Shown one piece after another: positions 17,476 through 20,814 of a DNA stretch of 64,000 nucleotides. The first letter of the stretch is position 1, and the number at the start of each line of letters is the position of its first letter. The position numbers and the translations under genes are program-made. Under the pieces are notes generated by a model, which ran no database searches, was not told the origin of the DNA, and saw nothing but the letters and a program-made list of their open reading frames with translations. This DNA is from Dokdonella immobilis (GTDB lineage: Bacteria > Pseudomonadota > Gammaproteobacteria > Xanthomonadales > Rhodanobacteraceae), in assembly GCF_900115085.1 (NCBI RefSeq), contig NZ_FOVF01000010.1, forward strand, positions 1 to 64,000. Direction: 5' to 3'.

Positions 17476-17502
17476 AATCCGCTCGAGACCGCAGACGGGC
17501 TT

Positions 17503-17619
17503 TCCTTCTCCCCTCGGGAGAAGGTGCCGAAGGCGGATGAGGGTCCGGCCTTGGCTGGAGTCCGGGCTCCGAACGAACCCTCATCCGGCCTGCGGCCACC
17601 TTCTCCCGGAGGGAGAAGG
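17503..17619. repeat. Imperfect inverted repeat between serS and tRNA-Ser
   Basis: Left arm 17503-17543 and right arm 17577-17619 are imperfectly complementary over about 40 bases; each arm also contains its own small hairpin (CTTCTCCC...GGGAGAAG). The arm sequence is related to the three palindromes at 15.8 kb. The structure looks like a small non-autonomous repeat or paired REPs. It may also end the serS transcript. Confidence 0.65.
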
Positions 17620-17696
17620 AAGAGGTTTGGGCGGATCCGGCGACTGCGTTAGACTTCGACGTCCTCGCAGGGCGCAATGATGCCTGGAAAGGTTCC

Positions 17697-17786
17697 GGAG
17701 AGATGGCCGAGTGGTTTAAGGCAGCAGTCTTGAAAACTGCCGTGGGTTTACGCCCACCGTGGGTTCGAATCCCACTCTCTCCGCCA
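17697..17786 (+). tRNA. tRNA-Ser (anticodon UGA)
   Basis: A 90-base cloverleaf: acceptor GGAGAGA pairs with TCTCTCC, followed by discriminator G and encoded CCA (17784-17786). The anticodon stem is GCAGT/ACTGC with loop CTTGAAA, placing TGA at 17731-17733, which reads UCA. A long variable arm (CGTGGGTTTACGCCCACC region) is typical of class II tRNA-Ser. The T arm has GGTTCGAATCC. Serine tRNA genes are common integration sites, and low-GC genes start just downstream, but no second copy of the tRNA 3' end was found within the window. Confidence 0.97.
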
Positions 17787-17856
17787 TCCATTGGTTCCGA
17801 GAGTGTAAGGTCGAAATTGTTCGCGTGAAACTTCATTCCGGCCCATCTATCTCCGG

Positions 17857-19014
17857 TTGGAAGGTTCTCCCAAAGGACGGCATCGGACTCAAGTGAAGCG
17901 AAGGTTAGTACAGAAGCGATTGGTATTCTTGGCTCGTCAAAAGTGGTTGTCTACTCGAGCTGCAGCTGAATCCGAAAGAAGAAGAGAGCGGAGTGCTTCC
18001 GCAGAAGCGTTCAGGCACAAGGGCCGGCACGTAATCACCTCAAGTAAGAGGAAACCTGTTCGCTATTTTCCAGCGCCGGAAGCCATAGACCTGAGTGACA
18101 ACTATGAGGCAACTGTAAAATTCCTGATGCAGTTTCGGAGGTGGACATCCTCAACCCGTCGAGCGAGTTCCTTCTACGTAGACCTCAGGCCAGTAAAGCG
18201 ACTTACTCCTGCGGGCGCATTGCTGCTCGCCGCCGAGTTTCACCGATGGAAAATTGCTCATGGTCGGAGACTTCGAGCTCTTGATGCAGGCGAGTGGGAT
18301 CTGGAAGTGCGGAATTTGCTGGGAACCATGGGGTTCTTTGAGCTGTTGGAGGTGGATCGAGGGTTGCTATCAATTGATGCTCCCCCATCACGCAACGGGG
18401 TCATTTACTTGCCGTTCGAGTGTGGTAGAGATACTGACACTAGGCCGTTTGTAAAACTTCGTGATCTAATCGAAAGTTCGGTAGGTAGACTCCCGCAGCG
18501 ATTAGTTCTATATCAAGCAGTTAGCGAGGCAATTACAAATGTGAGGCATCACGCCTACGAGCGGAAGAATAATCTGTCGAGGTGGTGGATGTCTGCTTCC
18601 ATAGACACAGTCGCCATGAAGCTAAAAGTGCTTGTATTGGATCATGGGCTTGGAATTCCATCGACCCTGCCGAGAAAGGGAGTGCTCGAAAAAATTCTTA
18701 GCTACCTAAAAATTTCTACGCTCCGAGGATTCTCGGATGACGGGCGAATGATTGACGCAGCAGTAACGCTAGGAAGATCTGCTGTGAAGATGCCGCACCG
18801 TGGTCACGGACTGAAGCGCGACATTCAATTTGCGATTCGGTCGTTTGATGGTATGGCTCGGCTTCGGATTCACAGCAATAGAGGCAGATATGTGTTTGCG
18901 CGCGACTTCGCAGGAACGGAGTCAAAATCCACAGCTTCGCTCAATAATTCTCTCGATGGTACCTTCGTGGAATGGACGTTTGAGCTGCAGCAGCTTGAAT
19001 TGAATCTGACATGA
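17857..19014 (+). CDS. STAS-like plus GHKL ATPase protein of a three-gene island
   Basis: Not a named protein. Of 385 residues, about 1-65 are strongly basic, about 85-165 read like a STAS fold (FYVDLRPVKRLTPAGALLLA), and about 215-345 contain GHKL ATPase boxes: N-box EAITNVRHHA, G1 box VLDHGLGIP and G2 box RGHGLKRD. There is no His-phosphorylation domain, so it resembles anti-sigma kinases (SpoIIAB/RsbW type) fused to a STAS-like part rather than a sensor kinase. The TTG start at 17857 is uncertain. It overlaps the next gene by ATGA. Base composition and codon use are clearly lower in GC than the neighbours, pointing to transfer. Confidence 0.75.
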   Translation: MEGSPKGRHRTQVKRRLVQKRLVFLARQKWLSTRAAAESERRRERSASAEAFRHKGRHVITSSKRKPVRYFPAPEAIDLSDNYEATVKFLMQFRRWTSSTRRASSFYVDLRPVKRLTPAGALLLAAEFHRWKIAHGRRLRALDAGEWDLEVRNLLGTMGFFELLEVDRGLLSIDAPPSRNGVIYLPFECGRDTDTRPFVKLRDLIESSVGRLPQRLVLYQAVSEAITNVRHHAYERKNNLSRWWMSASIDTVAMKLKVLVLDHGLGIPSTLPRKGVLEKILSYLKISTLRGFSDDGRMIDAAVTLGRSAVKMPHRGHGLKRDIQFAIRSFDGMARLRIHSNRGRYVFARDFAGTESKSTASLNNSLDGTFVEWTFELQQLELNLT

Positions 19015-19337
19015 AAATTGACTTAGCAAGAGAGTTTTCAACCGTCCCTTCAGGACGCTACTACAGCGACGGTCCGGATTCCGGCGAGCGATTTCGCGAG
19101 GAGTATCTGCGGCCTGCAATTTCTGAACCCGGGCCGATTGAAATTCGGATCGATGGGACAGCCGGGTTTGGTTCTTCATTTCTTGAAGAGGCTTTTGGAG
19201 GTGCGGTGCGATTGGGCTACATAGACGCGGCAACATTTCTAAGCAGGCTAAAGTTGGTTTATGATGATGAAGAATTTGCCATGTATGAAGATCTCATAAA
19301 GCTGTTCATAAATGACGCAAGATCAGAAAATCTCTAA
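19011..19337 (+). CDS. DUF4325 STAS-like protein
   Basis: A 108-residue protein matching the pattern of the STAS-like DUF4325 family: GERFREEYLRPAI, then a beta strand IEIRIDGTAGFGSSFLEE, then AFGGAVRLGY. In STAS proteins of the SpoIIAA type the serine at the strand-helix turn is the phosphorylation site; here the GSS of FGSSF occupies that place, which is inference from the fold. Translation is coupled to the upstream GHKL ATPase by a four-base overlap, and it overlaps the next gene by 26 bases. The likely reading is a kinase and switch-protein pair. Confidence 0.78.
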   Translation: MKIDLAREFSTVPSGRYYSDGPDSGERFREEYLRPAISEPGPIEIRIDGTAGFGSSFLEEAFGGAVRLGYIDAATFLSRLKLVYDDEEFAMYEDLIKLFINDARSENL

Positions 19338-19767
19338 CCAGAGACTGGATAACGAGGCTTCGTTTCTGGAGATCGTATTGAAGTCTATCCCTGGCGGAGC
19401 AATCGCTGGAGGATTTGTGTCGTGGGTCATGGCGAGAAAGAAGATTAGAGAGGATTCGGTTGCCAAAATTGTGGATCTACAAATTGACCTAATTTCAGAG
19501 ATTCATCTCTACTGGTCGCTGGATTCGCGAGATAGAGTCATCGAATCAACCATTGTCAGGCTTTTTCAAAGGTTCTCGAATCGGGTACGAGTGCACCTAA
19601 CGAAGTATGGGAACAGGAAGAGTCTGAAACTGGCTATGGATTGCGTAACGCGTGCGCATGTAGCGATCACAGGGTCGCCATTTTCAACGAGTTCATGGAG
19701 GCGTGCGGTTTGGCGAAGCACGGCTGCCAAATCAGAGCTTGAAAATGTTGCTAAGTTTGTGAAGTGA
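19312..19767 (+). CDS. Small predicted membrane protein of the three-gene island
   Basis: Unrecognised 151-residue protein. Its visible features are a polar N-terminus (1-20), one short hydrophobic stretch (about 22-41, IVLKSIPGGAIAGGFVSWVM) followed by positive residues (ARKKIRED), and a soluble helical C-terminal part of about 105 residues. This predicts a single-pass inner-membrane protein with a cytoplasmic tail. A 60-base sample at 19321-19380 counts 26 G or C, about 43 percent, against 37 of 60 in serS at 17161-17220. It overlaps the DUF4325 gene by 26 bases, so it belongs to the same transcript. As the only membrane component it could be the effector or anchor of the module; unproven. 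Confidence 0.65.
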   Translation: MTQDQKISNQRLDNEASFLEIVLKSIPGGAIAGGFVSWVMARKKIREDSVAKIVDLQIDLISEIHLYWSLDSRDRVIESTIVRLFQRFSNRVRVHLTKYGNRKSLKLAMDCVTRAHVAITGSPFSTSSWRRAVWRSTAAKSELENVAKFVK

Positions 19768-20085
19768 ATTTCGTCGAGTTGGAATTCGCCGAAATACGAG
19801 AATTCCTCGAAAATCACTGAACCTGGGCGAACTCATTTTGTCTGGCGCACTTCGTCAATGGAGAGTTGCGTAGGCCAATACGACTGTAAGGGGTGTTTGT
19901 AGTCCGGAGTTAACGTTTTAGTTGGGTGCAGAGTGTCACTGAAGCGAACTCCCGTCGTAGCGAGATTTGTTGATGCCGGTTGCAGTTCGGCGGCGCCCAT
20001 ATACCTATCAAACCCATCCCACACTCTCCCCGGCCAAAATGTACAATCAGCCAGGCGCAATCGGGCAGCGCAGGGAGAGTCATTG
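19768..20085. other. Low-GC gap at the right edge of the island
   Basis: No gene supported. GC rises toward 20000, which marks the right boundary of the foreign segment. No copy of the tRNA-Ser 3' end, integrase remnant or IS end was recognised. An extended -10 box TGTACAAT at 20040-20047 lies 38 bases before the next gene and may be its promoter, though no good -35 accompanies it. Confidence 0.5.
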
Positions 20086-20814
20086 ATGAGACGCGGGATC
20101 CTGGCAGTCCTCGTGGTTGTCCTGTTTTCCGGTTGCGCCAACTACCAGACCATGGCACTGAAGAAGGGGCAGCGCACGATCAGCACGACGGCCGAATCGG
20201 TGGTGCTGCTGACGGTCGAGGTGTCGCGGCCGGATGGCAGCCGCTATCAGCCGAATCCGGCGATCGTGCTTGTCTCTGCGATGCACACCGGCGACCGGGA
20301 GCAGGCGACGTTGTTCCGCTTCAGCCGCAAGGATGACCGGGTCGAGATGGACGGTCATGCCGTCTATCTCTCCAGCATGGCCCTGGCGCCGGGCCATTAC
20401 CGGATCGATGGCATCTCGGGCATCGCCAACGCTTTTCCGTTCATTGGCCAGTTCTTCATTCCCGTGCTGGCCGAATTCGACGTCGAGGCGCAGTCGGTGA
20501 GCTATCTCGGTCACATCGCGGCGACGATGCGCGAACGCAGGGAAGGCGAGTTCCGCGCGGGTTCCACGATTCCGCTGATCGACCAGTCGGCGACCGGCAT
20601 GATCAGTCATACGTGGGATGTCGCGATCGAGAACCGCTACGACACCGACATGGCCACGTTTCGCCAGCGGTTTCCGGCCCTCGCCGATCTGCGCGTGCAG
20701 AGCGAAGCGCTGCCTGCATGGGATCGCGCTGCTGCCCAGCGCCTTTGGGACGGTGTCAGCAAGCCGGCGGCCGAGACAACCGCGGACGAAGCCGTTTCTT
20801 CGCGGGCCAACTAG
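20086..20814 (+). CDS. Predicted lipoprotein, function unknown
   Basis: A 242-residue precursor with a lipoprotein signal: MRRGILAVLVVVLF followed by the lipobox SGC, so Cys17 would be lipidated. The mature part is soluble and beta-rich (VVLLTVEVSRPDG, PNPAIVLVSAM, HYRIDGISGIANAFPFIGQFF), consistent with a surface or periplasmic domain. No enzymatic motif was recognised. GC content returns to the chromosomal level, so it belongs to the core side of the boundary. The ATG follows an AGGGAGAG ribosome site and is chosen because it begins the signal peptide; the frame is open to 19933. It is convergent with chrA, 69 bases away. Confidence 0.75.
   Translation: MRRGILAVLVVVLFSGCANYQTMALKKGQRTISTTAESVVLLTVEVSRPDGSRYQPNPAIVLVSAMHTGDREQATLFRFSRKDDRVEMDGHAVYLSSMALAPGHYRIDGISGIANAFPFIGQFFIPVLAEFDVEAQSVSYLGHIAATMRERREGEFRAGSTIPLIDQSATGMISHTWDVAIENRYDTDMATFRQRFPALADLRVQSEALPAWDRAAAQRLWDGVSKPAAETTADEAVSSRAN

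What the first reader, a model, noticed from the sequence alone, without database searches (positions are those of the whole stretch)
17697..19767. tRNA-Ser-linked low-GC cassette: STAS-GHKL ATPase, DUF4325 switch protein and a small membrane protein
Three translationally overlapping genes (ATGA, then 26 bases) begin 70 bases after a tRNA-Ser(UGA). A 60-base sample in the third gene counts about 43 percent G+C, against about 62 percent in serS. The first protein joins a STAS-like part to a GHKL ATPase without His-kinase domains; the second is a free STAS-like protein; the third is a single-pass membrane protein. By family logic this is a SpoIIAB/SpoIIAA-like phosphorylation switch with a membrane partner, but with no sigma factor present. 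It may be a mobile stress- or phage-response module; that role is inference and I know no described system with exactly this set.
Basis: partly seen in the sequence, partly recalled or inferred. Interest (0 to 1): 0.85.

Follow-up and report, generated by a model that had tools for sequence, protein, structure and literature searches.

The report
Mobile kinase switch with membrane partner
A three-gene mobile cassette, found in many phage and plasmid sequences, whose kinase is related to a recently described bacterial immune kinase but which has a small membrane protein where the best-known relative has an RNA-cutting toxin; it may be a new form of stress- or phage-triggered defence, not yet tested.

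Summary
In detail: three overlapping genes (kinase K, DUF4325 protein S, small membrane protein M) at 47-50% G+C in a 65% G+C window, directly after tRNA-Ser. Nine genus mates lack K; the one collinear mate has 339 bp where the window has 2.23 kb, with an exact copy of the tRNA 3' end in that slot. The trio is a unit: in 121 distinct loci with adequate flanks, recruited only by S, K is adjacent in 119 (fused in one more) and an M-like gene follows in 109. In at least 14 of 56 viral loci it follows a CI-like repressor; plasmids carry it too. K is a relative of CapK (hhalign 95.7%, E 1e-8), an ssDNA-activated immune kinase published in June 2026; catalytic N218 is conserved, and in a weak alignment S56 falls on CapS's phosphorylated S54. 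It most likely works like VapKSC from that paper: K phosphorylates S, releasing an effector, here a membrane-anchored helical bundle instead of a nuclease. The kinase-substrate logic is well supported; M's action, the trigger and anti-phage activity are inferred. I found no description of this trio as a system in the papers searched.

The parts
17697..17786 (+). tRNA-Ser (anticodon tga), left border and probable attachment site
   Evidence: ARAGORN; 3' end repeated exactly in the matching slot of genus mate G006
17787..20016 (.). low-G+C island (0.494) absent from the one collinear genus mate, where 339 bp stand instead
   Evidence: blastn of the window against L195 = G006:C9:8400-14400; G+C
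17893..19014 (+). K: STAS-GHKL serine kinase with long basic N-terminal helix, CapK relative (ORF open from TTG 17857)
   Evidence: weak HATPase, RsbW and SpoIIAB family hits below cut-offs; phrog_3364 6.5e-36; AF2 pLDDT 87, pTM 0.80; SpoIIAB 1til_E prob 1.00, TMt 0.60, E 2.7e-4; hhalign to CapK 95.7%, E 1e-8
19011..19337 (+). S: free DUF4325 STAS-like protein, probable phosphorylation substrate (S56)
   Evidence: PF14213 4.8e-9; S56 invariant in the window and 13 of 13 aligned loci recruited through the kinase; aligned with CapS S54, weakly
19312..19767 (+). M: small membrane protein, N-terminal membrane segment plus probably cytoplasmic four-helix bundle; proposed effector
   Evidence: AF2 pLDDT 88.9, pTM 0.73, first 30 residues only 53-70; charge bias puts the C-terminal domain in the cytoplasm in 120 of 129 family members; no known family, no significant fold match
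20016..20036 (.). degenerate copy of the tRNA-Ser 3' end at the right border of the island
   Evidence: local alignment score 26 against a null 95% of 24 and 99% of 31 in the window, so weak alone; an exact 18-nt copy stands in the same slot in G006 at L195:2533-2550

Best explanation
A mobile three-gene partner-switch cassette that works like VapKSC with a membrane effector. In resting cells S (DUF4325) binds the cytoplasmic bundle of M and holds it inactive. On a stress signal, probably nucleic acid exposed by DNA damage or phage infection, the STAS-GHKL kinase K phosphorylates S56; phospho-S lets go of M, which acts at the inner membrane to arrest or kill the cell, or to block the phage. 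Temperate phages and plasmids carry it; in a good part of the prophage-like loci it sits directly behind the repressor gene, so that it would be expressed in the lysogen. Shown here: conserved trio, mobility, kinase homology to CapK, conserved catalytic and substrate residues, membrane-anchored M (predicted). Inferred: S binds M, M is the effector, the trigger, and anti-phage activity.
For: Trio: K adjacent in 119 (two of them, L074 and L092, only fragments) and M in 109 of 121 usable distinct loci; distances of K, S and M covary (r 0.53-0.72, 0 of 999 permutations each). Natural K-S fusion in L088. K vs CapK: hhalign 95.7%, E 1e-8; HMM 31.5 bits against at most 2.5 for 200 shuffles; CapK N218, E214, D249 and G251 match residues identical in 139 of 139 family members and H222 one identical in 137. 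S56 invariant in 14 of 14 aligned and aligned with the phosphorylated CapS S54. In the paper CapK phosphorylates CapS S54, and mutations in VapS S48, VapC D28 or VapK F54 each abolish protection against a phage. Prophage position: of 974 proteins within four genes of the trio, 20 are repressor-like, all upstream and none downstream; phrog_4 repressor in 20 of 94 upstream proteins. Plasmids. M: more K+R after than before the membrane segment in 120 of 129.
Against: No functional data. The ssDNA-stacking W68 of CapK (F54 of VapK) falls in a gap for 137 of 139 kinases, so the trigger may differ. CapS and DUF4325 are linked only weakly by profile (hhalign probability 0.4%, E 0.15, 26 columns). M matches no known toxin; its best structural neighbours (E 0.057, not significant) are histidine-kinase sensor domains. 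Outside the close S family the trio is not universal: a Vibrio vulnificus record has DUF4325 with no kinase gene upstream, no M was seen after S on the Nostoc and Alicyclobacillus plasmids or at L220, and on the Alicyclobacillus plasmid a gene annotated as sigma factor-like HTH precedes the kinase. PADLOC hits among neighbours are few and have no control. In the window only one neighbouring gene (P0004) was scanned, and it is neither phage nor defence.
Confidence: 0.5

Rival explanations
1. M is the sensor or anchor, not the effector: the membrane bundle reports envelope state, recruits S, and K-S relays the signal to an unidentified host or phage target.
For: M's predicted bundle resembles histidine-kinase sensor bundles, though not significantly; in stressosomes STAS and GHKL proteins relay signals (family knowledge, recalled; abstracts).
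Against: No fourth gene is constant beside the trio in the families shown by the neighbour tallies, so no cognate output is seen; charge bias puts the bundle in the cytoplasm; the closest three-gene relative has its effector in this slot.
Confidence: 0.22
2. A lysogeny or superinfection switch: K-S-M tunes prophage induction or blocks DNA entry by related phages through M, without killing the host.
For: Position behind CI-like repressors, same strand in 18 of 19; found in temperate phages; M is a membrane protein as superinfection-exclusion proteins often are (recalled).
Against: Also on plasmids, one of them conjugative and, as in the window, in a small island whose only long ORFs are the trio, where a lysogeny switch has no obvious use.
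Confidence: 0.18
3. A host regulatory stress switch that is only incidentally mobile, comparable to RsbT/RsbS.
For: K and S belong to the anti-sigma/STAS superfamily; a sigma factor-like HTH gene precedes a distant relative on an Alicyclobacillus plasmid.
Against: Sporadic distribution: 4 of 99 relatives and 7 of 274 class genomes by protein search, the window's own counted in both; no sigma factor or phosphatase among the cassette proteins or the families shown in the neighbour tallies; strong link to mobile DNA.
Confidence: 0.1

Closest known systems
VapKSC (Escherichia sp. E4736; Chambers et al., EMBO J 2026, PMC13373217)
   Same: Three-gene operon of STAS-GHKL kinase, small STAS protein with a conserved phospho-acceptor Ser/Thr, and a third protein; no DNA-binding domain on the STAS protein; some relatives near defence genes
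   Different: Third gene is a membrane-anchored helical bundle, not a PIN nuclease; S is DUF4325 (a name absent from the paper's main text); kinase has a basic N-terminal helix.
CapK/CapS (Enterobacter roggenkampii; same paper)
   Same: Kinase homologous over the C-terminal half of the STAS part and the GHKL domain; catalytic residues conserved; phospho-Ser S54 aligned with S56, weakly
   Different: CapK has an N-terminal HTH and CapS a C-terminal wHTH and represses a downstream immune operon; here neither domain is seen and no immune operon follows
SpoIIAB/SpoIIAA and RsbW/RsbV
   Same: GHKL serine-kinase fold (1til_E prob 1.00) and STAS-like substrate
   Different: No sigma factor in the cassette; K carries its own STAS-like domain; membrane protein instead
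phrog_3364 and phrog_5816 (PHROGs, unknown function)
   Same: K and S match them (6.5e-36 and 3.1e-11); S matches only the C-terminal end of the 441-position phrog_5816
   Different: Families without assigned function

Membership tests
CapK/CapS | STAS-GHKL kinase homologous to CapK with intact catalytic residues | tested here: met
   hhalign 95.7%, E 1e-8; HMM 31.5 bits, best of 200 shuffles 2.5; N218 = N228 in 139 of 139
CapK/CapS | N-terminal HTH on the kinase | tested here: not met
   P0001 has one long helix 7-55, net charge +11 in 50 N-terminal residues
CapK/CapS | substrate with C-terminal winged HTH | tested here: not met
   S is 108 aa; DUF4325 covers 24-85 and no HTH family matches
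CapK/CapS | placed upstream of an immune operon | tested here: not met
   the gene after M is a lipoprotein-like ORF with no PADLOC match; genes further on were not scanned
VapKSC | operon order kinase, STAS protein, third protein | tested here: met
   window and 107 of 121 usable loci with both neighbours
VapKSC | third protein is a PIN (VapC-like) nuclease | tested here: not met
   M model is all-helical; no PIN match for M; one of 51 relatives matches PIN_4 at E 0.03, as do many other families at that level
VapKSC | conserved Ser/Thr in the STAS protein at the phosphorylation position | tested here: met
   S56 in 14 of 14 aligned, aligned with CapS S54; VapS itself not available
VapKSC | ssDNA-stacking aromatic between STAS and GHKL (CapK W68, VapK F54) | tested here: inconclusive
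   W68 falls in a gap for 137 of 139 kinases; nearest mostly aromatic column is F89 (78%); alignment there is poor
VapKSC | toxicity of the third protein and neutralisation by S | not testable with these tools
   needs expression experiments
SpoIIAB/SpoIIAA sigma switch | cognate sigma factor in or beside the operon | tested here: not met
   none among the four window proteins scanned or the families shown in neighbour tallies; a sigma factor-like HTH gene does precede a distant relative on an Alicyclobacillus plasmid

The most novel reading that the evidence does not exclude
K-S-M is a large, so far unnamed family of lysogen- and plasmid-borne immune switches in which a CapK-type kinase controls a membrane-acting effector through a phosphorylated DUF4325 antitoxin: a partner switch that opens on the membrane rather than on a sigma factor, a repressor or a nuclease.
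Probability: 0.45. Interest if true: 0.8.

Novelty: new variant of a known kind. Interest (0 to 1): 0.62.

Why it matters
It would give a function to PF14213 (DUF4325) and phrog_3364, and would explain a recurring three-gene block of hypothetical proteins behind phage repressors. It also makes the modularity idea of the 2026 paper directly testable with three small genes.

Tried and rejected
Close-relative scan of genome contigs with K alone found no relative; the profile of S worked instead. A viral-contig scan with the L088 fusion found none. PADLOC and NCBIfam give no family for S or M. Tblastn of M against plasmids found nothing. Profile searches of solved structures with S and M gave nothing significant. 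Foldseek with M gave no match at E <= 0.001. An alignment of the L088 fusion with 54 other rows (A5) aligned badly and was not used. The PIN-like reading of the ORF beside the L227 fusion was not confirmed by Pfam or by PDB sequences, so it is not used as evidence. I considered that the trio might be a MADS component: rejected, since none of the three matches a PADLOC model. Invariance of S56 in the 160 S-recruited loci is not used as evidence, because the search peptide contained it. One kinase-recruited locus, L015, carries only fragments of K and S and was left out of the alignments and counts. One of 106 downstream neighbours (a 2,210-aa ORF, L153) was left out. The PADLOC neighbour scans, covered 296 of 360 collected neighbours. 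One paper search returned only eukaryotic Mad1/Mad2 papers.

Full report
What is there. The window holds tRNA-Ser(tga) at 17697-17786 followed by three overlapping genes on the same strand: K (ORF 17857-19014, likely start GTG 17893), S (19011-19337) and M (19312-19767). G+C is 0.504, 0.468 and 0.471 against 0.648 for the window. The next gene, an ORF at 19933-20814, looks like a lipoprotein (weak YgdI/YgdR match below the cut-off) and is back at 0.639 (20086-20814). The rest of the window was not annotated.

Mobility. None of nine genus mates encodes K by protein search (two of the nine are only 85-87% complete); K occurs in 4 of 99 relatives and in 7 of 274 genomes of the class, the window's own genome counted in both, one of the seven (L015) being fragments only. 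With a profile of 76 kinases, 36 of 369 class genomes match at E <= 0.01, but only eight, the window's own included, are strong (E below 1e-50); most of the rest are weak, short matches. The genus mate G006 is collinear on both sides; window 17787-20016 corresponds to 339 bp there. In that slot G006 has an exact 18-nt copy of the tRNA 3' end, and both genomes share a degenerate copy at the right border (window 20016-20036). In the window alone this border repeat is marginal (score 26; null 95% 24, 99% 31). The only long ORFs in the island are the trio, so there is no integrase and how it arrived is open. Only G006 shows both flanks on one contig (in G004 they fall on two contigs), so the empty site rests on one genome.

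The trio is a unit. I searched for S only: 349 of 382 genome stretches and 223 of 247 viral stretches encode relatives, and the best 80 of each were fetched, that is 160 of 572. These are 144 distinct loci (L044 and L065 repeat loci met earlier), 121 with more than 1.3 kb upstream and 0.65 kb downstream. A K match is adjacent in 119 of 121 (a fragment only in L074 and L092), fused to S in one more (L088), and not found in one (L082). M is adjacent in 109 of 121 by profile or by hydropathy. Of the other 12, L018 has an M-profile hit that overlaps S, eight have an adjacent ORF of 148-176 aa below my thresholds, two have no ORF and one has an unlike ORF. The M profile, built from 13 loci, hits 131 of 11,430 ORFs; 130 lie directly downstream of S and the other is L018. 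The K profile hits 159, of which 158 are adjacent and the other is the fusion. Pairwise distances correlate (K-S 0.61, K-M 0.72, S-M 0.53; 0 of 999 permutations each; 134 loci); shared descent alone would give this too, so it shows joint inheritance, not contact.

Limits of the unit. Further out the order loosens. A Vibrio vulnificus record has DUF4325 and a small protein but no kinase gene upstream. On a Nostoc plasmid one 414-aa protein matches both kinase and DUF4325 and no M was seen after it. On an Alicyclobacillus plasmid kinase and S are followed by insertion-sequence genes and preceded by a sigma factor-like HTH gene. An Acinetobacter plasmid has a short, IS-flanked kinase gene.

Where it lives. 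Loci include Proteobacteria, Leptospira, Tamlana, Luteolibacter and Phycisphaerae. Among 56 distinct viral loci with upstream genes, 14 have a repressor-like gene at one of the two places before K; none of 58 has one at the two places after M; in genomes 5 of 70 and 0 of 78. Of these 19 repressors 18 are on the same strand, and most of those next to K end within about 100 bases of it (a lower bound from one seed, itself counted). Independently, 20 of 94 upstream neighbours match the PHROGs repressor family phrog_4, and an integrase family is the commonest match among 105 downstream neighbours (7). The order repressor, K, S, M is annotated in a Pasteurella record. In the Francisella prophage KIRK, UV-inducible by its abstract, the table lists CI, a 293-aa protein with 23% identity to a phage AS1 protein, a DUF4325 protein and a 125-aa membrane protein in order (PMC7924643, one table passage seen). 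Plasmids carry the trio too, and K with S. Among genome neighbours (296 of 360 collected proteins scanned, top 25 families shown) PADLOC finds mad2 (5 proteins), mad3 (2), mad5 (2), type I restriction genes and PbeA (2); there is no control set, so this is only suggestive.

The kinase. The model of K is good (pLDDT 87, pTM 0.80): a long N-terminal helix, an alpha/beta domain and a GHKL domain, which Foldseek matches to many GHKL ATPases, SpoIIAB among them (1til_E, E 2.7e-4, prob 1.00, TMt 0.60). The residues of the GHKL motifs (motif knowledge recalled) E224, N228, D262, G264, G316 and G318 are identical in 139 of 139. The N-terminal 50 residues are strongly basic in the family (median net charge +12, P0001 +11), which would suit nucleic-acid sensing. 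A plasmid search returned the very CapK and CapS proteins of the 2026 paper (WP_001567866.1, WP_001567865.1). K and CapK are homologous, and N218, whose mutation strongly reduced CapS phosphorylation, is N228 here, in 139 of 139.

The substrate. S is a DUF4325 protein; its own structure was not modelled. In the window and the 13 aligned loci recruited through the kinase S56 is invariant. The profile comparison with CapS is weak (probability 0.4%, E 0.15) but aligns GFGSSFLEE with ATDSSFPRE, so that S56 falls on S54, the residue CapK phosphorylates (paper section). The fusion L088 joins kinase and DUF4325 in one chain. More distant loci L221 and L224 keep the order: a kinase-profile match, a DUF4325-like protein with the serine (7.7e-12 in L221; only 0.049 in L224) and a protein with membrane segments by eye; at L220 no third gene was seen in the short flank.

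The third protein. M diverges fastest (10-26% identity to P0003 in 12 relatives, against 39-47% for S). Most copies keep a tyrosine (Y67 in 100 of 150, often followed by W) and a TG..F motif (T120 in 128 of 150), and 136 of 150 have a membrane-like segment, mostly near the N-terminus. Charge bias places the C-terminal domain in the cytoplasm in 120 of 129 (7 ties; rule recalled). The model (pLDDT 88.9, pTM 0.73, weaker over the first 30 residues) is a membrane-anchored four-helix bundle with no significant structural relative.

How it most likely works. In VapKSC, VapS binds and neutralises VapC; VapK, thought to be activated by ssDNA, phosphorylates VapS and frees VapC; the operon protects E. 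coli by about 2 log against phage Bas42, and mutations in any of the three abolish it (PMC13373217; abstract and sections 7, 11, 13, 14, 18, 33 read, other passages seen). The cassette here has the same order and a related kinase, so the simplest reading is the same switch with a membrane effector. The kinase-substrate step I hold at about 0.85, M as effector at about 0.55, a defence role at about 0.6. Against it: CapK's ssDNA-stacking tryptophan has no clear counterpart, M has no known toxic fold, and I know of no experiment.

Novelty. In the library searched, DUF4325 occurs in two papers, in one table passage each as seen; 'STAS-like domain-containing' in one (listing only); 'STAS-like domain' with 'phage defense' in none. 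Searches for STAS, GHKL and prophage (1 paper), for STAS domain, anti-phage and partner switching (17 papers, listings seen) and for anti-sigma antagonist, abortive infection, transmembrane and GHKL (1 paper) leave the 2026 paper as the only relevant one. Its main text does not hold the word DUF4325. I therefore file the trio as a new variant of a known kind. Most subscription papers and preprints were not searched.

Noticed in passing
L195:1680-2076 (G006) and L196:2030-2783 (G001): In two genus mates the 5' half of tRNA-Ser (about 37 nt) is repeated in a tandem array beside the intact tRNA, on its 5' side, with periods of 187 and 162 bases. Origin unknown.
   Followed up: partly
L088:8365-9303 (Pseudomonas thivervalensis): Natural fusion of the GHKL kinase domain with DUF4325 in one 312-aa protein, followed by the usual membrane protein.
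   Followed up: partly
L227:499-996 and 1027-2196: A GHKL-DUF4325 fusion preceded by an ORF that looks PIN-like by eye; Pfam and PDB sequence searches did not confirm PIN.
   Followed up: partly
genome loci L016-L082, genes within three places of the trio: Several neighbours match MADS defence genes (mad2 5, mad3 2, mad5 2 proteins of 296 scanned) and type I restriction genes.
   Followed up: no
window 17502-17621: Inverted repeat with 25-nt arms (92% complementary) between serS and tRNA-Ser; similar sequence occurs at many places in this genome and its genus mates, as REP-like elements do (recalled).
   Followed up: no
L242:3770-8392 (IncHI2A plasmid, Enterobacter roggenkampii): CapK and CapS precede a multiubiquitin-type operon on IncHI2A plasmids; seen in the three records opened (the last apparently with truncated genes) of 35 records matched.
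   Followed up: no
L210:1914-3158 (Nostoc plasmid): A 414-aa protein annotated as DUF4325 that also matches the kinase, probably another kinase-substrate fusion.
   Followed up: no
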